Translations under genes and position numbers: made by a program
The notes under the pieces: model-generated
What the model was told of the DNA's origin: nothing
The model's database searches: none
What the model saw: only the letters and a program-made list of their open reading frames with translations
Shown: positions 237 to 39,300 of the stretch, in pieces
How the letters are laid out: each line of letters starts with the position of its first letter
Numbering within the stretch: position 1 is the first letter of the stretch
From: Muribaculaceae bacterium
GTDB taxonomy: Bacteria; Bacteroidota; Bacteroidia; Bacteroidales; Muribaculaceae
Length of the DNA stretch: 43,650 nucleotides
Assembly: GCA_017454355.1 (NCBI GenBank)
Contig: JAFTDD010000015.1
Span: 1 to 43,650, forward strand
Reading direction: 5' to 3'

Positions 237-276
237 AACGCTGAAAAAAAATTTCAGCGTTGAAGTTGGGTTAGAT
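237..276. repeat. Presumed IS terminal sequence with hairpin
   Basis: Positions 255-276 contain CAGCGTTGAAGTTGGGTTAG followed by AT. The same 22 bases occur at 3721-3742, and their inverse at 3690-3709, in a perfect palindrome. An inner hairpin pairs 237-246 with 252-261 around five A residues. Because the transposase gene reads leftward from 117, this is in the right place to be the 5' end of that IS. The other end lies outside the window, so neither terminal inverted repeats nor a target duplication can be confirmed. Confidence 0.5.
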
Positions 277-721: not shown

Positions 722-868
722 ATGAACAAGAGAGTAAAAAAGCAGGTTGAGCACATTTGCTATTATTGCAAATTTTCATGTGCTTGTGGCTGGCACTTGT
801 GGTATTGCACCAAGCACGATGAAGATGTGAGCGAACAAAATTCCTGCAATGATTGGGAAGAAGAATAA
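722..868 (+). CDS. Small Cys/His-rich hypothetical protein, 48 aa
   Basis: The ATG at 722 follows the previous stop by one base, implying translational coupling. The 48-residue product starts MNKRVKKQVEHICYYCKFSC and contains a CxxC pair, a CxC and further Cys and His residues (CGWHLWYCTKH), with an acidic end. Such spacing suggests a tiny zinc-binding or treble-clef-like domain, but no family can be named. Longer upstream in-frame starts exist but would overlap the preceding gene heavily, so the short form is preferred. Confidence 0.5.
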   Translation: MNKRVKKQVEHICYYCKFSCACGWHLWYCTKHDEDVSEQNSCNDWEEE

Positions 869-875
869 CAAGAAT

Positions 876-907
876 GTTTAACAAGGTGGGGAGCAATCCC
901 CACCACA
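876..907 (+). promoter_or_regulatory. Leader hairpin module, copy 2
   Basis: GTTTAACAAGGTGGG (876-890) repeats the lead of copy 1. GGTGGGGA (885-892) pairs perfectly with TCCCCACC (897-904) around a GCAA loop, a GNRA tetraloop. The hairpin ends 17 bases before the ATG at 922. The stem sequence differs from copy 1 but pairing is kept, which supports a selected RNA structure. Confidence 0.5.
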
Positions 908-921
908 TTTCAACCGAGACA

Positions 922-1152
922 ATGAAAGCAACAACAAAACAAATCGAACCGCTGAAGAAGCTGCACCACTATTATCAAGGCGTAGACATCAGCGCACTGG
1001 ACATCAAGCACGCATCGAAGATGATTTCGGTATTGCTGACGATGAAGAAAAATCGTTGGAATTTCAAGTATCTTGCCAGCCTTTCTGATGAGTTTTACGA
1101 CATTGAGGAACAAGCCTTCGGCAATCAGCTGACTCCAGCCGAGAGTTGGTAA
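922..1152 (+). CDS. Small hypothetical protein, 76 aa
   Basis: I chose the ATG at 922 (MKATTKQIEPLKKLHHYYQG) because it sits 17 bases after leader hairpin copy 2, as in the gene at 481. An upstream ATG at 853 would read through the hairpin. The 76-residue product is mostly helical and basic in the middle (..KHASKMISVLLTMKKNRWNFKYLASLSDEF), with no signal peptide. The family is not recognised. It is the last plus-strand ORF before the convergent minus-strand toxin operon, and the two stop codons are only about 30 bases apart. Confidence 0.5.
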   Translation: MKATTKQIEPLKKLHHYYQGVDISALDIKHASKMISVLLTMKKNRWNFKYLASLSDEFYDIEEQAFGNQLTPAESW

Positions 1153-1181: not shown

Positions 1182-1715
1182 TTAATATAAATCAGGGATT
1201 AAAAAAGATAAACAAATAGGACCAAACATTTTATCTGGACTATTAATGTCATTTTCCAATAATTTTGTACTTTGGTTCCATTCGAATAATACTTTATGAT
1301 TATTATCGCATATAGTAAAATAGTATAAGAATGGCGTATAATTACTATCTATAACTTTCTGTTTAAGTACGTGTTCAGTATTGATTAAAGAAAATAACTG
1401 TTGCATCATTTGGTCATCTTTTGGTAAATGGACAGTATTATATTGATAACAGAGTGCTGTCAAATGTGAATCGGCATAGAATACACTATAAAAACTGATA
1501 TTGTCAATTGCAATCATCCATGAAGTAATACCATTACAACCACTCATGTAAAACGCGCAATATGACTTTCCTGCCACACTGTCTTTTAGTTGCGAATTCG
1601 CAATTAAATTTGATAATCCATTTCTCTGCCCCTCATAAAAACAATCAAAATCAGATGCTAAAGATATTGACTTCGAGAGAATGGATATAATTATTAAGAT
1701 ATAAAATTGTTTCAT
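1182..1715 (-). CDS. Secreted putative immunity protein of the mini-RHS toxin, 177 aa
   Basis: The product starts MKQFYILIIISILSKSISLA, a typical signal peptide, so it is exported to the periplasm or envelope. The mature part has several cysteines and no recognised domain. Its ATG overlaps the stop of the upstream RHS/metallopeptidase gene by four bases (ATGA, 1712-1715), giving tight translational coupling. A small unknown gene directly after a polymorphic-toxin gene is the usual place for the cognate immunity protein. That role is inferred from position only. Base composition is AT-rich like its two operon partners. It could instead be a chaperone or a lipid-free accessory factor. Confidence 0.55.
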   Translation of the reverse strand: MKQFYILIIISILSKSISLASDFDCFYEGQRNGLSNLIANSQLKDSVAGKSYCAFYMSGCNGITSWMIAIDNISFYSVFYADSHLTALCYQYNTVHLPKDDQMMQQLFSLINTEHVLKQKVIDSNYTPFLYYFTICDNNHKVLFEWNQSTKLLENDINSPDKMFGPICLSFLIPDLY

Positions 1716-2521
1716 CTAAAAGAAGGTAAAGCTGTGGCATTTGGTACCAAGGTTTTTGGACCATGATTAATTCCAGTATTAATAAAAGGAATCCCCATCA
1801 TTCTAAGAATCAAGTTCTCTGTTTGAACAGCATCAATATGTTGTTGCATTTCAGATGTGTGTCCTATTGACAATGAACGCCCATGCCCAAAGATTTCGTG
1901 TCCAGTAGTTACGGAAATCCCATTAAGATGCAATAGCGGATCCATCAAAATTACAGAGTACGTTCCATTATTAATCTCAGTGGTTACACCACCGCCACCA
2001 ATAGATTTCACCAAAAAAGCAGGAATGCCGCCATATCTATCCATTGTCCTCTGGACATCAATATAACTTGGCAGCAGTGGAGAAATAGTTTCTGTTCCTC
2101 TGTTAGACAGTAAACCATCGCTATTTAAATACTCAACAAAATGCTTAGATGGAGAGTTAATGGTATTAACAACAATATCAACCATAGCTTGTTGATCTCC
2201 ATTTAAAGTTAGCCCATATAATGCGGCAGATAATGCATCATCATTAATCTTTGCCAATGAATATCCATTCTGTTTTTTCCCTGACTGAACAATAAGCCCC
2301 CTAAATTGCTCAAATTCATCACCCGGGAAAATGGCTCTGATATCTTGTACTGCCATTGCCGCATCATCGCGTGTTACTCCCCTAATCTCACAACCACTAG
2401 GGTCAATATACCGAATAGGATTTCCAGCGCAATAAGCATAGGGAGATAAATGACCATAAGCGTAAGCGACATTAAAAATGCTAGCACATAAGCATAACAA
2501 AATACTAATTACCTTATTCAT
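1712..2521 (-). CDS. Secreted mini-RHS protein with HExxxH metallopeptidase-like toxin domain, 269 aa
   Basis: I chose the start MNKVISILLCLCASIFNVAYA (signal peptide, residues 1-21) over an in-frame ATG 12 codons upstream. Directly after the signal peptide is a scrap of RHS core, SPYAYCAGNPIRYIDPSG (about residues 26-43), the conserved sequence that precedes the variable toxin tip in RHS proteins. The remaining ~225 residues hold GHEIFGHG (H208, E209, H213; HExxxH rather than the classical HExxH) and TENLILRMMGIP (E235), like the 'ENxxRxxxGxP' that follows the zinc site in RHS/T6SS metallopeptidase toxins. The usual kilobases of RHS repeats are absent, so this is an orphan tip given its own export signal. 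It overlaps the gene before it by 8 bases and the one after by 4. Metallopeptidase activity is inferred. Confidence 0.7.
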   Translation of the reverse strand: MNKVISILLCLCASIFNVAYAYGHLSPYAYCAGNPIRYIDPSGCEIRGVTRDDAAMAVQDIRAIFPGDEFEQFRGLIVQSGKKQNGYSLAKINDDALSAALYGLTLNGDQQAMVDIVVNTINSPSKHFVEYLNSDGLLSNRGTETISPLLPSYIDVQRTMDRYGGIPAFLVKSIGGGGVTTEINNGTYSVILMDPLLHLNGISVTTGHEIFGHGRSLSIGHTSEMQQHIDAVQTENLILRMMGIPFINTGINHGPKTLVPNATALPSFR

Positions 2522-3539
2522 ATCCTTGTTTTTTTTGATGTTCTTGTAAAATACCATATCCTGATTCCCAACGTTGCTTAAGTTCTTCTGTTAATTGTGT
2601 CATATAAGTGTTCGCTAATTGTTGCTGAGATTCCATTATTAATAGGTCTAAATAATCAGTATAGTAATCCGCTAGTCCTCCATTCTTTTTTAAGTAGTTG
2701 AGGAGAAGTGTCTCGGCAGATTTTCCCTTAATAATAATTGCATTAGGATTCATCGGGTAATACCGTAATGACATTTGCACGCAATCTAATGTGAATTTAT
2801 CGTATTTATGATACTTCGCATTATATCCAAATGCTAAATCAGTCAATTGTGCTGCAACTGTTTGTCTATCGCTTAGCGGTGTTAAATATGTGCCTTTCGA
2901 GATGGCTGAATCAGAAATGGCAAAATACTCTTTTATCCAAAATGTGGGTTGATATTGGTGCGATGTCAATTCTACATTAACCCATTCTTCAGGGTAAAGA
3001 TTATCTTCATCTTTGTACATTATAAAACAATGTCCTGGACCATGAGCAATGTAAGCTTTCGCCTCTATAGCTTCCGCAAACAATTTGTATGCCCATGGTA
3101 ATGAGTGACACTGGCCTTTATGAGACTTAAGCACCCTTGACACAAACTGATTTCTCCAATCATTAGTGGGGATTTCTCCAGTAAAATCGTAGGTATAAGG
3201 TTTATAGTTGTTGCCAGACCATGGGTTAAAAAAATATTCGCACAAGGCCATTTGTTTTGCCGTCTTATACTTTTCTAAGTGATTAACAGAAATAAAACTA
3301 TTAATAAAATTTGATACACGATTGATTTCTTCACAAAAGTCCTTTTCATAATCAAGATTCCCATCAAGATAAGCCCACTCAGACAAAAAAACAGCTCGTT
3401 TTATTGAAAGATCTGTTATTCCTTCCAACATCGATGTCATCTCTTTATAAGCCATCACGTATCTTTTGTCAACATCTTGTGAGAAGACATTTTGACAAAA
3501 CAACACAAAACAAACAATTGTAAACAACAGCTTTTTCAT
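2514..3539 (-). CDS. Secreted transglutaminase-like (Cys-His) protein, 341 aa
   Basis: The start MKKLLFTIVCFVLFCQNVFSQ at 3539 gives a clear signal peptide; a longer start five codons upstream does not improve it. Residues 138-195 carry KSHKGQCHSLPWAYKLFAEA (C144), then AHGPGHCFIMY (H170), then EEWVNVEL (N188/E190). This is the Cys...His...acidic order of transglutaminase-like/SirB1-type folds. The rest is helical, with TPR-like spacing in the C-terminal third. It is the first gene of an AT-rich three-gene operon and its stop overlaps the mini-RHS gene by 8 bases. It may process, crosslink or mature the toxin, or degrade a target itself. The substrate cannot be told from sequence. Confidence 0.6.
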   Translation of the reverse strand: MKKLLFTIVCFVLFCQNVFSQDVDKRYVMAYKEMTSMLEGITDLSIKRAVFLSEWAYLDGNLDYEKDFCEEINRVSNFINSFISVNHLEKYKTAKQMALCEYFFNPWSGNNYKPYTYDFTGEIPTNDWRNQFVSRVLKSHKGQCHSLPWAYKLFAEAIEAKAYIAHGPGHCFIMYKDEDNLYPEEWVNVELTSHQYQPTFWIKEYFAISDSAISKGTYLTPLSDRQTVAAQLTDLAFGYNAKYHKYDKFTLDCVQMSLRYYPMNPNAIIIKGKSAETLLLNYLKKNGGLADYYTDYLDLLIMESQQQLANTYMTQLTEELKQRWESGYGILQEHQKKQGYE

Positions 3540-3684: not shown

Positions 3685-3745
3685 GAAACCTAACCCAACT
3701 TCAACGCTGTAAATTTTTTACAGCGTTGAAGTTGGGTTAGATTTC
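3685..3745. repeat. Perfect 24-bp palindrome built from the IS-end sequence
   Basis: Arm 3690-3713 and arm 3717-3740 are exact inverse complements around TTT. With one C:A mismatch the pairing extends to 3685 and 3745. Each arm contains the 22-base sequence seen at 255-276 beside the transposase gene. It can be read as two IS ends with nothing between them (a MITE-like ghost), or as a strong bidirectional hairpin terminator. Confidence 0.65.
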
Positions 3746-36316: not shown

Positions 36317-39300
36317 ATGAAAAAATCGCTCGCTCTATTAGGAGCATTATTACTGGCATGCGGAGCGCCCACGGCGATTGTCAACGCCGCGCCGGCGCCG
36401 CAGGCGGTTGCTCAAGCGACAGCAATCGTGACCGGCACTGTCACCGATGCACAGGGAGAACCCATCATCGGAGCCAGCGTCACAGAGATTGGCACCAACC
36501 GAGGCACGGTCACCGATGTCGATGGCCGGTACTCGCTCAAGGTGGCCCCGGGAGCAAAACTCCAAATCTCGTTTATCGGTTACAAGACACAGACCATCAA
36601 GGCCCAGAACGACGCCCGCGTCAGCCTGGCCGACGACAACGCCCTTCTTGACGAAATCGTTGTCGTGGGTTACGGCACCCAGAAGCGCGTCAACCTCACC
36701 GGCGCCGTCACAACCGTCGACGTCGACAAGACCCTCACCTCGCGCCCCGAGCAGGATGTCACTAAGGCTCTCCAGGGTGCTGTGCCGGGCTTGAGCGTCA
36801 TCAACAGCAGCGGTAACCTCGACGACAGCCCCTCGCTCACCATCCGTGGTGTGGGTACCCTCAGCAACAGTGCCACCAGTTCGCCGCTCATCATCGTGGA
36901 CGGTGTGCCCATCGAGGACCTCTCGATGGTCAACGGCGACGACATCGCCTCAATCAGCGTCCTCAAGGATGCCGCCTCGGCCTCTATCTACGGTACCCGA
37001 GCAGCCTTCGGTGTGATCCTCATCACCACCAAGCAGGGACGCAAGGGTGAGCGCGTCAGCGTCAAGTACAGCAACAACTTCGCGTGGGACCACGCCACCA
37101 AGTTGCCCGACTTCCCCGATGTGCCCACGCAACTCGAGGCCGCTATCCGCGCCAAGAACCGTCAGAGCCCGGGAGCAAGTGTCGAACTCTTCGGTATGTA
37201 CTTCGACCAATTGCTGCCCTACGCCCAGAAGTGGAAGGAGCAGAACAGCGGCAAGCTCGGCTACGGCGAGATGCGACCCTACGTCGACGACAACAACGTG
37301 GGCGACTACCGCTTTGTGGGCAACCAGCCGTTCTACTATGCCGACTTTGACATCCGGGACATCTGGTATCAGAAGGCAGCGCCGGCCCAGAGCCACAATG
37401 TGTCAATCAGCGGCTCGAGCGCCAAGACGACCTACTATGCCTCGTTCGGTTACAGCGGCAAGGAAGACCTGATGAAGTTCGCCCCCGGCAAGCGCACGCG
37501 CTACAACGCCGCCGTGAGCCTCACCACCGACCTCACCGACTGGCTCACCGTCGGTGTGCGCGCCAACTATTCTCGCCGCAACTTCGACCGCGCCGAGACC
37601 TACAACAACATGTACCAGTACCTCTGGCGATGGGGCTCGTTCTTCATCCCCAGCGGCACCATCAACGGTGAGGACTTCCGCGTCATCGCCATGCAGAAGC
37701 AGGCCGACCGCCGCGTCAACACCCACGACATGACGCGCCTCAACGCCTTCCTCAAGGCCCACATCACCAAGGACCTCACCCTGCACGCCGACTTCACCTA
37801 CCAGATCAACAACGTCAACCGCAAGTGGAGCGACTTCCCCATCTACGGTATGAACTGGAGCGGCACTACGCCGGGCTACATCGTCGGCCAGAACAGTTCG
37901 GCCACCTTCCGTGGCAACGAGAAGGCCAACACCTGGACCGCGCAGGCCTACCTCGAGTACGCCAAGTCGTTCAAGGACGCCCACAACCTCAAGGTGATGA
38001 TCGGTCTCATGGGCGAGGAGCGCAAGTATGACTACTTCGGCGCCCAGCGCAGCGGCCTCTATAACACCGACTATCCCGAACTGGCCCTCACCTACGGCGA
38101 CCGCGCCAACTGGGCCATCGGCAGCAGCACCAGCGGCAAGCAACTCTCGTGGCTGCGCGGCGACTATGCCACCGCCGGCTACTTCGCCCGCATCAACTAT
38201 GACTACAAGGGCATCTACCTGCTCGAGTTGAACGGCCGCTACGACGGCTCGTCCAGTTTCCCCGGCAGCGACCGCTGGGCATTCTTCCCCTCGTTCTCGG
38301 TGGGTTACCGCTTCAGCCAGGAGAAATATTGGGACGGCATCCGTGACGTGGTCGACAACGCCAAGTTGCGCTTCTCGTTCGGCGAAATCGGCAACGAGGC
38401 CGTCGGCGACGCGATGTATCTCGAGACCATCGGCGTGAGCACTATCAACTACCTCGACGCCAACGGCAACAAGTACAACGCCTTCGGCATGCCGGCATGG
38501 GTGTCGAGCACACTGTCATGGGAACGCATTCGCACCATGAACCTCGGTCTCGACCTGGGCTTCCTCAACGACCAGATCACCTTCAGCGGCGAAATCTTCC
38601 AGCGTGAGACGCGCGACATGCTCGCTCCGGGCTCGGCCCTGCCGCCCAGCGTCGGCACCGGCGCGCCCTACACCAACAACGGCACCCTGCGCTCGCGCGG
38701 TTGGGAGTTCACCGTCAGCTGGCAGAAGCAGTTCAACAAGGACCTCGGCCTCTACGCCAACTTCTCCATCGGCGACAGTAAGGTCAAGGTCACAAAGTGG
38801 GACACCGACAGCAAACTCATCGGATACCCATGCAACTCGGCCTATGCCTACACCGGCATGACATGGGGCGACATATGGGGATTTGAGACCGACCGCTACT
38901 TCACCGAGGACGACTTCAACGGCAAGAACGCTGACGGCTCGTGGAACTACAAGGACGGCGTGGCCAGCCAGGTTGGCATCCAGACCAACCAGTTTGTCTA
39001 TGGCCCGGGCGACATCAAGTTCAAGGACCTCAACGGCGACGGCGTCATCGATGGCGGAGCCGGCACCGAGGAAGACCACGGCGACCTCAAGGTCATCGGC
39101 AACATGCTGCCGCGATACGAGTACAGCTTCCACCTGGGTGGCACATGGAAGGGCTTTGACCTCGACCTCTTCTTCCAGGGCGTCGGACGACGCAAGATGT
39201 GGACCCAGAGCGCCTTTGTCTTCCCCGAGATGCGCGAGGCCGACCTGGCCATCTTCGCCAACCAAACCAGCTACAACATCTATGAGCCGGAGAACGGCAT

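What the first reader, a model, noticed from the sequence alone, without database searches (positions are those of the whole stretch)
1182..3539. Three-gene secreted toxin cassette built on an RHS tip without RHS repeats
A signal peptide is joined directly to the last ~18 residues of an RHS core (YAYCAGNPIRYIDPSG) and then to an HExxxH..ENxxR metallopeptidase-like tip. The gene overlaps a Cys-His transglutaminase-like gene on one side (8 bases) and a secreted small unknown (putative immunity) on the other (4 bases). All three carry signal peptides, so the toxin would act in the periplasm, the cell surface or outside, not in the cytoplasm of the producer. The DNA is AT-rich: one 60-base row (2761-2820) counts 20 G/C, against 43 in a row of the SusC gene (38101-38160). 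Orphan RHS tips are known; an exported, repeat-free one with this partner looks unusual.
Basis: partly seen in the sequence, partly recalled or inferred. Interest (0 to 1): 0.85.

Follow-up and report, generated by a model that had tools for sequence, protein, structure and literature searches.

The report
Exported RHS-tip toxin with transglutaminase partner
A bacterium carries a small three-gene weapon-like module (an enzyme-fold protein of the transglutaminase kind, a stripped-down exported toxin candidate and its likely antidote), one of many such modules with interchangeable toxin ends in related bacteria, a kind that our searches did not find described.

Summary
In detail: a TG-like gene, a toxin-like gene and a small gene (3539-1182, minus) overlap by 8 and 4 bases; the toxin candidate is a signal peptide joined to the last ~20 residues of the RHS core and an HExxxH..ENxxR tip. 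It is neither a one-off nor an assembly error: four other genera of the family carry the trio. The TG is the constant partner. All 13 near-complete copies found in 198 family genomes stand directly upstream of a short RHS-tail gene; over family and order 48 of 52 lie near one (5 judged by eye), the other 4 being cut by contig ends. Tips are exchanged: 19 clusters in 37 genes, with N-terminal parts 82-90% alike carrying tips 14-21% alike. TG and short RHS are fused in two loci. The TG keeps Cys, His and Glu (53, 53, 52 of 54). The same tip ends a TssD (Hcp) protein in a type VI locus, so it is very likely an effector domain. Best reading: a compact exported polymorphic-toxin class with a dedicated transglutaminase-fold partner. 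Toxicity, metal binding, TG chemistry and exit route are not shown.

The parts
2514..3539 (-). TG1: exported protein of the transglutaminase/papain-like kind (341 aa); C144, H170, N188, E190 as candidate active-site residues; signal peptide ending NVFS|Q (by eye)
   Evidence: PF13369 E=6.7e-4 (below cut-off); C and H in 53 of 54 and E in 52 of 54 aligned TG proteins (1 D, 1 gap)
1712..2521 (-). Exported short RHS-tip toxin candidate (269 aa): signal peptide, RHS-core remnant, HExxxH..ENxxR tip
2459..2521 (-). Signal peptide of the toxin, about residues 1-21 (AYA|Y)
   Evidence: sequence; hydrophobicity rule
2393..2458 (-). RHS-core remnant, about residues 22-43
   Evidence: TIGR03696 positions 55-75 of 76; S26, Y28, P35, D40, G43 invariant in the 37 proteins of A6
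1712..2392 (-). Tip A, residues 44-269, predicted metallopeptidase-like toxin domain
   Evidence: H208, E209, H213, N236 invariant and residue 235 E or D in the 8 aligned tip-A proteins; same tip on a TssD protein
1182..1715 (-). Predicted immunity protein with signal peptide, 177 aa
   Evidence: 22.6% identical (E=1.2e-7) to the small gene behind the tip-A cassette of L074, E=0.001 to an orphan copy in L037; no BLAST match at E<=1e-3 to the small genes of L033-L036
255..275 (+). 21-bp repeat left of the trio
3689..3741 (.). Hairpin of the same 21-bp repeat right of the trio (3689-3709 minus with 1 mismatch, 3721-3741 plus)

Best explanation
The trio is a compact polymorphic-toxin module. The toxin gene has no RHS repeat cage and keeps only a signal peptide, the end of the RHS core and a C-terminal toxin tip; the small gene is its immunity protein; both are encoded in overlap with a transglutaminase-fold protein (TG), and all three are exported by Sec (predicted from sequence). 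The tip is probably a zinc peptidase that acts in the cell envelope of other bacteria, and the exported immunity protein protects producer and kin (inferred). The TG is the constant part: tip and immunity change, TG and RHS tail stay (shown by comparison). Hence the TG most likely acts on the shared N-terminal piece of the toxin, either cutting at the RHS junction in trans in place of the missing RHS self-cleavage domain, or joining the toxin to a surface or carrier; which of the two is open. How the toxin crosses the outer membrane is unknown.
For: Trio with 4-base TG/toxin overlaps in 4 other genera. TG directly upstream of a short RHS-tail gene in 13 of 13 near-complete family copies although the tips differ. 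Over family and order, of 52 near-complete TG genes 28 have an RHS-tail ORF of the same strand within 100 bases or fused, 15 more within 4 kb, 5 more by eye with degenerate tails (L170, L186 twice, L191 twice); the last 4 (L180, L190, L193 twice) are cut by contig ends; reversed-protein control 0 of 391 ORFs, 39 forward. TG and short RHS in one ORF in L189 and L191. 19 tip clusters in 37 proteins; N-parts 82-90% and tips 14-21% identical in L174/L177 and L175/L183/L187 (the L187 tip is cut by the contig end). Recognised toxin families among the tips: Ntox21 (2), M91 (2), Toxin-JAB1 (1) of 37. Orphan tip-A-type immunity genes behind the tip-B toxin of L063, and a tip-B remnant behind the tip-A toxin of L033. 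Tip A on TssD in a T6SS locus. Signal peptide in 32 of 37 TG-linked toxins against 15 of 55 other short RHS genes. dN/dS about 0.1 for toxin and TG and 0.46-0.48 for immunity in L035/L036.
Against: No toxicity, immunity or enzyme activity shown. Single-sequence structure models were useless. No Pfam or PDB relative of tip A, and most TG-linked tips have no Pfam family at E<=0.01. TG Pfam support is weak: 10 of 30 members match PF13369. Tip A also occurs without TG (L074, L076). Of 26 strong N-domain places, 2 have no TG in the fetched stretch (L196, L199). The small genes behind tip A do not form one recognisable family: the window's has no match to those of L033-L036. Five family loci hold only TG fragments (L070-L073, L078). 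The SP controls were hand-picked and only from the family, while the TG-linked set spans the order. Two TG-linked toxins (L188, L192; Ntox21) have an immunity gene without signal peptide, so envelope action is not universal.
Confidence: 0.7

Rival explanations
1. Silent cassette: the short RHS gene is a displaced orphan tip kept as donor for recombination with a full-length RHS gene, and the signal peptide is incidental.
For: Short RHS genes without signal peptide are common in the family (40 of 55 non-edge genes among the loci examined); L074 and L168 hold such cassettes of tip A and of another tip; the own genome has a 1968-aa RHS gene on another contig (L130).
Against: Signal peptide in 32 of 37 TG-linked genes; an N-domain whose 26 strong matches all lie in open frames of at most 380 aa, or 686 when fused; constant TG; purifying selection.
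Confidence: 0.13
2. The TG is no enzyme but an anchor or chaperone that holds the toxin at the surface, like the inactive transglutaminase domains of long RHS toxins described in PMC3482391. (A variant of the best explanation that differs in the role of the TG.)
For: That paper (section 19 read) places TG domains after the signal peptide of RHS toxins and proposes peptide binding; here TG and toxin are also fused in two loci.
Against: The paper's domains lost one or more of C, H, D; here C and H are kept in 53 of 54 and an acidic residue in 53 of 54. No TG match lies in a frame above 693 aa.
Confidence: 0.3
3. An exported enzyme pair for nutrition or wall remodelling, unrelated to antagonism; the small gene is an accessory protein.
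For: All three proteins look exported; no T6SS TssC was found in the genome; most tips have no known toxin family.
Against: Tip exchange, recognised toxin families among some tips, fast evolution and orphan copies of the small genes; the tip on a TssD protein.
Confidence: 0.07

Closest known systems
Polymorphic toxins with RHS repeats (PMC3482391; section 19 and passages seen)
   Same: Variable C-terminal toxin, immunity gene 3' of it, signal peptide for the Sec route, tip cassettes and leftover immunity genes
   Different: No RHS repeats, only the end of the core; separate TG gene(s) as constant partner
'Inactive transglutaminase' RHS toxins (PMC3482391, section 19)
   Same: Transglutaminase-fold domain, signal peptide and RHS toxin belong together
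   Different: There one polypeptide with RHS repeats and a broken triad; here usually separate genes, no repeats, C-H-E kept
Displaced (orphan) RHS tips (name recalled; examples)
   Same: Short gene that begins near the RHS junction, followed by a small gene
   Different: Own signal peptide, in many loci an own ~70-aa N-domain, and a TG partner
Bacteroidales T6SS TssD (Hcp) proteins
   Same: Tip A at the C-terminus of a TssD protein (L076)
   Different: The window's toxin has no TssD part; no TssC in 14 of 14 TG-bearing family genomes (the same search rings in G433)
Peptidase_M91 / Tox-HopH1 metallopeptidase tips
   Same: HE..H and [DE]N motifs in similar order; a short RHS gene on contig C76 of the same genome is M91 (E=1.5e-13)
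   Different: HExxxH, not HExxH; no Pfam M91 match for tip A; profile comparison aligned 40 columns only (59% probability)
TANFOR polymorphic toxins (PMC7073777; passages only)
   Same: Polymorphic toxins of Bacteroidetes, mostly with signal peptides
   Different: Large proteins with a TANFOR domain; 0 occurrences of transglutaminase in the text

Membership tests
Polymorphic toxin system | Constant N-terminal part with exchanged C-terminal tips | tested here: met
Polymorphic toxin system | Small gene directly downstream of the toxin | tested here: met
   found within 250 bases for 33 of 37 TG-linked toxins (4 without, some at ends)
Polymorphic toxin system | Immunity type follows the tip type | tested here: inconclusive
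   window and L074 agree, L035 and L036 agree, L033 and L034 agree, but these groups are not recognisably related to each other by BLAST
Polymorphic toxin system | Tip is toxic and the small protein neutralises it | not testable with these tools
   needs the bench
RHS proteins (full type) | RHS repeats that form a cage | tested here: not met
   only positions 55-75 of TIGR03696; no repeats seen
RHS proteins (tip) | Conserved NPxxxxDPxG-type junction before the tip | tested here: met
   (36 of 37 match TIGR03696 at E<=0.01; window below the curated cut-off)
Transglutaminase-like superfamily | Sequence match to the family | tested here: inconclusive
   of 30 members 10 match PF13369 and 3 PF01841 at E<=0.01; the window's match is below cut-off
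Transglutaminase-like superfamily | Cys-His-Asp triad | tested here: inconclusive
   C 53/54, H 53/54, E 52/54 and D 1/54 in place of Asp; activity untested
Peptidase M91 / Tox-HopH1 | HExxH zinc motif with [DE]N | tested here: not met
   HExxxH in 8 of 8 tip-A proteins; no Pfam match; partial profile match
T6SS effector | Carried by or encoded with T6SS parts | tested here: not met
   for the window: no TssC (PF17541, the only T6SS model searched) in its genome (89% complete) or 13 TG-bearing relatives; met for the homologous tip in L076
T9SS cargo | C-terminal T9SS sorting domain (recalled) | tested here: not met
   no Pfam match at E<=1 in the toxin; SprA present in 14 of 14 TG-bearing family genomes

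The most novel reading that the evidence does not exclude
A class of exported polymorphic toxins in Bacteroidales-like bacteria in which an active transglutaminase-fold enzyme, in trans or fused, replaces the RHS cage and its self-cleavage: it processes or covalently mounts any toxin that carries the short RHS tail, so tips can be exchanged without the long shell.
Probability: 0.3. Interest if true: 0.82.

Novelty: new variant of a known kind. Interest (0 to 1): 0.64.

Why it matters
RHS toxins are thought to need a large repeat shell that encloses and releases the toxin (recalled). A recurring form that keeps only the junction and brings a conserved enzyme-fold partner would show which part of the architecture is essential, would point to an undescribed maturation or mounting step, and would add a toxin class to the arsenal of these bacteria. 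It also gives many unnamed short 'RHS core domain' genes a testable role.

Tried and rejected
Assembly error or hidden full-length RHS: rejected (the motif search was crude). L003 (Mucilaginibacter), the only genome-contig hit: a small unrelated ORF seeded by a shared peptide, dropped. Viral contigs: no relatives of tip or TG. Plasmids: none for the tip; for the TG five distant rhizobial matches of 22-30% identity. PDB by sequence: nothing convincing for toxin, TG or immunity profiles. M91 membership: a 40-column partial match only. Tip A in relatives: 0 of 60 other genomes. Envelope immunity as a special mark of the TG class: rejected, controls show the same (57 of 63).

Limits of the counts. 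The signal-peptide test is a home-made hydrophobicity rule, not SignalP. The RHS-tail pattern misses degenerate tails (five found by eye). The 60 control stretches were picked by hand from the listings (that was cut short); 12 control genes at stretch ends were left out of the 55. Two sets of 37 TG-linked proteins were used: that, and A6 (A6 has L170 and L191 in place of L178 and L187). In one search the HELFH tip of L066 clusters with tip A at E<1e-4, so the family's 13 loci hold three clusters, or four kinds by motif. The N-domain model A9 was built from 15 TG-linked proteins; of the 26 places at E<=1e-6, 11 were not in it: 8 of the 11 have a TG in the locus (L198 only a fragment seen by eye), 2 have none (L196, L199), 1 is at a contig end (L200).

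Full report
What was checked. The toxin candidate is a signal peptide followed by the end of the RHS core (TIGR03696 positions 55-75 of 76, below the curated cut-off) and a 226-residue tip with HExxxH and ENxxR. The base-composition claims are exact. Pfam matches neither the toxin nor the small gene; the first gene has a weak transglutaminase match.

Conservation of the trio. In 198 genomes of the same family four others, in four other genera, carry the trio in the same order (L033-L036). TG and toxin overlap by 4 bases in all four. TG proteins are 49-52% and toxins 46-53% identical to the window's, the small proteins only 16-18% in a forced alignment; by BLAST the window's small protein matches none of these four at E<=1e-3. 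The close pair L035/L036 gives dN/dS of 0.09-0.12 for toxin and TG and 0.46-0.48 for the small gene; a second pair (L188/L192) gives 0.23-0.35 for toxin and TG, and L033/L062 0.07-0.12 for the TG. The nine cassettes compared and the window's are all poorer in GC than their surroundings, and tip A was found in none of the 60 other genomes searched as relatives, so the window's copy was probably acquired.

The constant gene is the TG. A TG profile (A2) hits 14 of 198 family genomes in 19 places. All 13 near-complete copies (at least 200 aa and 150 profile positions) stand directly before a short RHS-tail gene (from 53 bases overlap to 28 apart, depending on the start chosen), but that gene ends in different tips: tip A (HExxxH; window, L033-L036), tip B (..NNCATAVQ.., membrane-type small proteins; L062-L065), a HELFH tip (L066, related to tip A) and a lipase-like GHSMGAG tip (L067-L069). 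The six other places are fragments in five loci; four lie next to toxin or immunity-like genes or remnants (L070-L073), one (L078) does not visibly.

Outside the family. The TG profile hits 23 of 393 genomes of the order in 44 places (three genomes also in the family set). All 63 rows of the two searches (three places in both) were covered by 48 stretches; they hold 52 near-complete TG genes. 28 have an RHS-tail ORF on the same strand within 100 bases or fused, 15 more within 4 kb, 5 more by eye, and the last 4 are cut by contig ends. The reversed-protein control of the pattern gave 0 of 391 ORFs, the forward one 39. In 11 of 28 loci outside the family there are two TG genes, often one of about 350 and one of about 450 aa. 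Many of the short RHS proteins there have an own N-domain of about 70 residues (..NPFxxYGY..LTLSNGK..) between signal peptide and RHS tail. Searched on its own it has 26 matches at E<=1e-6 in 16 of 393 genomes; 15 of the 16 also have a TG; none lies in a long RHS frame (at most 380 aa, or 686 when fused). In L189 and L191 TG, N-domain, RHS tail and tip are one protein. The window's family mostly shows a reduced form: with tips A, B and HELFH the mature protein would begin about at the RHS tail.

Tips are exchanged. 37 TG-linked proteins fall into 19 tip clusters. Pairs with 82-90% identical N-parts outside the family have tips of 14-21% identity; in the family, where the N-part is only signal peptide and tail, L035/L062 have 88% and 16%. 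Behind the tip-B toxin of L063 lie two small genes of the kinds found with tip A (48% and 46% identical to those of L035 and L034); behind the tip-A toxin of L033 lie a tip-B remnant (80% identical to L062 over 139 residues) with a membrane-type gene and another small gene 30% identical to L033's own. Recognised toxin families are few: Ntox21 in 2, Peptidase_M91 in 2, Toxin-JAB1 in 1 of 37; most tips match nothing in Pfam.

Tip A is very likely an effector domain. An order-wide search finds it in 4 of 393 genomes: the window; a cassette without signal peptide behind an RHS frame of at least 2000 aa (cut by the stretch) and before a relative of the window's small gene (L074); a TG-flanked short RHS protein (L075); and the C-terminus of a protein with a TssD (Hcp) domain (PF17642, E=7.6e-15) near tssC (PF17541, E=6.3e-224) (L076). 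In the 8 tip-A proteins aligned (window, L033-L036, L074-L076) H208, E209, H213 and N236 are invariant and residue 235 is E or D. A zinc peptidase is likely but not shown. It resembles the M91/Tox-HopH1 tips of the same bacteria in the order of motifs, but the spacing HExxxH differs and the profile match is partial.

Is the TG active? In an alignment of 54 TG proteins C144 and H170 are kept in 53 and E190 in 52 with one D; the remaining row is a fragment. In PMC3482391 (section 19 read; other passages seen) transglutaminase domains of RHS toxins are described as inactive, within long repeat proteins, and as possible anchors. The form here differs in all three points. Of the searches of the papers library, the one for transglutaminase, Rhs, immunity protein and toxin together gave two papers, this one and an unrelated clinical one; the others listed none with this arrangement, judged by title and start of abstract. 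Subscription journals are mostly not held, bioRxiv not at all.

Export and delivery. A home-made signal-peptide rule finds one in 32 of 37 TG-linked toxins and in 15 of 55 other short RHS genes of the family (Fisher p=1.5e-8; controls hand-picked and from the family only, so the p-value is no more than a guide). The downstream gene is exported or membrane-bound in 31 of 33 TG-linked cases, but also in 57 of 63 controls, so envelope-directed tips look like the rule for RHS in this family. TssC was found in 0 of 14 TG-bearing family genomes (it rings in G433; other T6SS or contractile-system genes were not searched). The T9SS protein SprA is in 14 of 14, but no sorting domain was recognised in the toxin. 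The exit route is unknown.

Mechanism. Shown by sequence: overlapping genes, constant TG and RHS tail, exchanged tips and small genes, fused forms. Inferred: Sec export, peptidase activity in the envelope, immunity. Proposed: because TG and RHS tail stay while tips change, the TG acts on the tail. In long RHS proteins the core cuts itself at the junction (recalled; papers on it appear in the listing); the short form lacks the part that does this, so a TG-fold cysteine enzyme could cut or attach in its place. An anchor without catalysis remains the main rival.

Noticed in passing
window 255-275 and 3689-3741: A 21-bp repeat stands left of the trio and as a hairpin right of it; a search of the genome with up to 2 mismatches shows two further near copies. 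It could mark a mobile element, or be a terminator.
   Followed up: partly
window 853-1152 (+): Small ORF with a weak match to the helical domain of BREX BrxC (PF25792, E=0.0014, below cut-off), next to the AT-rich trio.
   Followed up: no
L002/L038 (same genome, contig C76): A second exported-looking short RHS gene with most of the RHS core (TIGR03696 12-75) and an M91 tip, followed by a small gene; the TG profile matches only once in this genome, in the window.
   Followed up: partly
L130 2473-8379 (same genome, contig C92): A 1968-aa RHS protein with signal peptide, so the genome also holds the long form.
   Followed up: partly
L108, L115, L119, L120: Short RHS genes whose signal peptides resemble each other or that of a neighbouring longer RHS gene (by eye), suggesting loss of RHS cages elsewhere too, without a TG seen.
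   Followed up: partly
L188 5838-7636 and L168 1418-3057: Three tandem copies of the small gene behind one toxin (L188 without signal peptide, Ntox21-type tip; L168 with signal peptide).
   Followed up: no
L076 971-5338: T6SS locus of the Bacteroidetes type with a TssD-domain protein that ends in tip A: a specialised Hcp-type effector candidate.
   Followed up: partly
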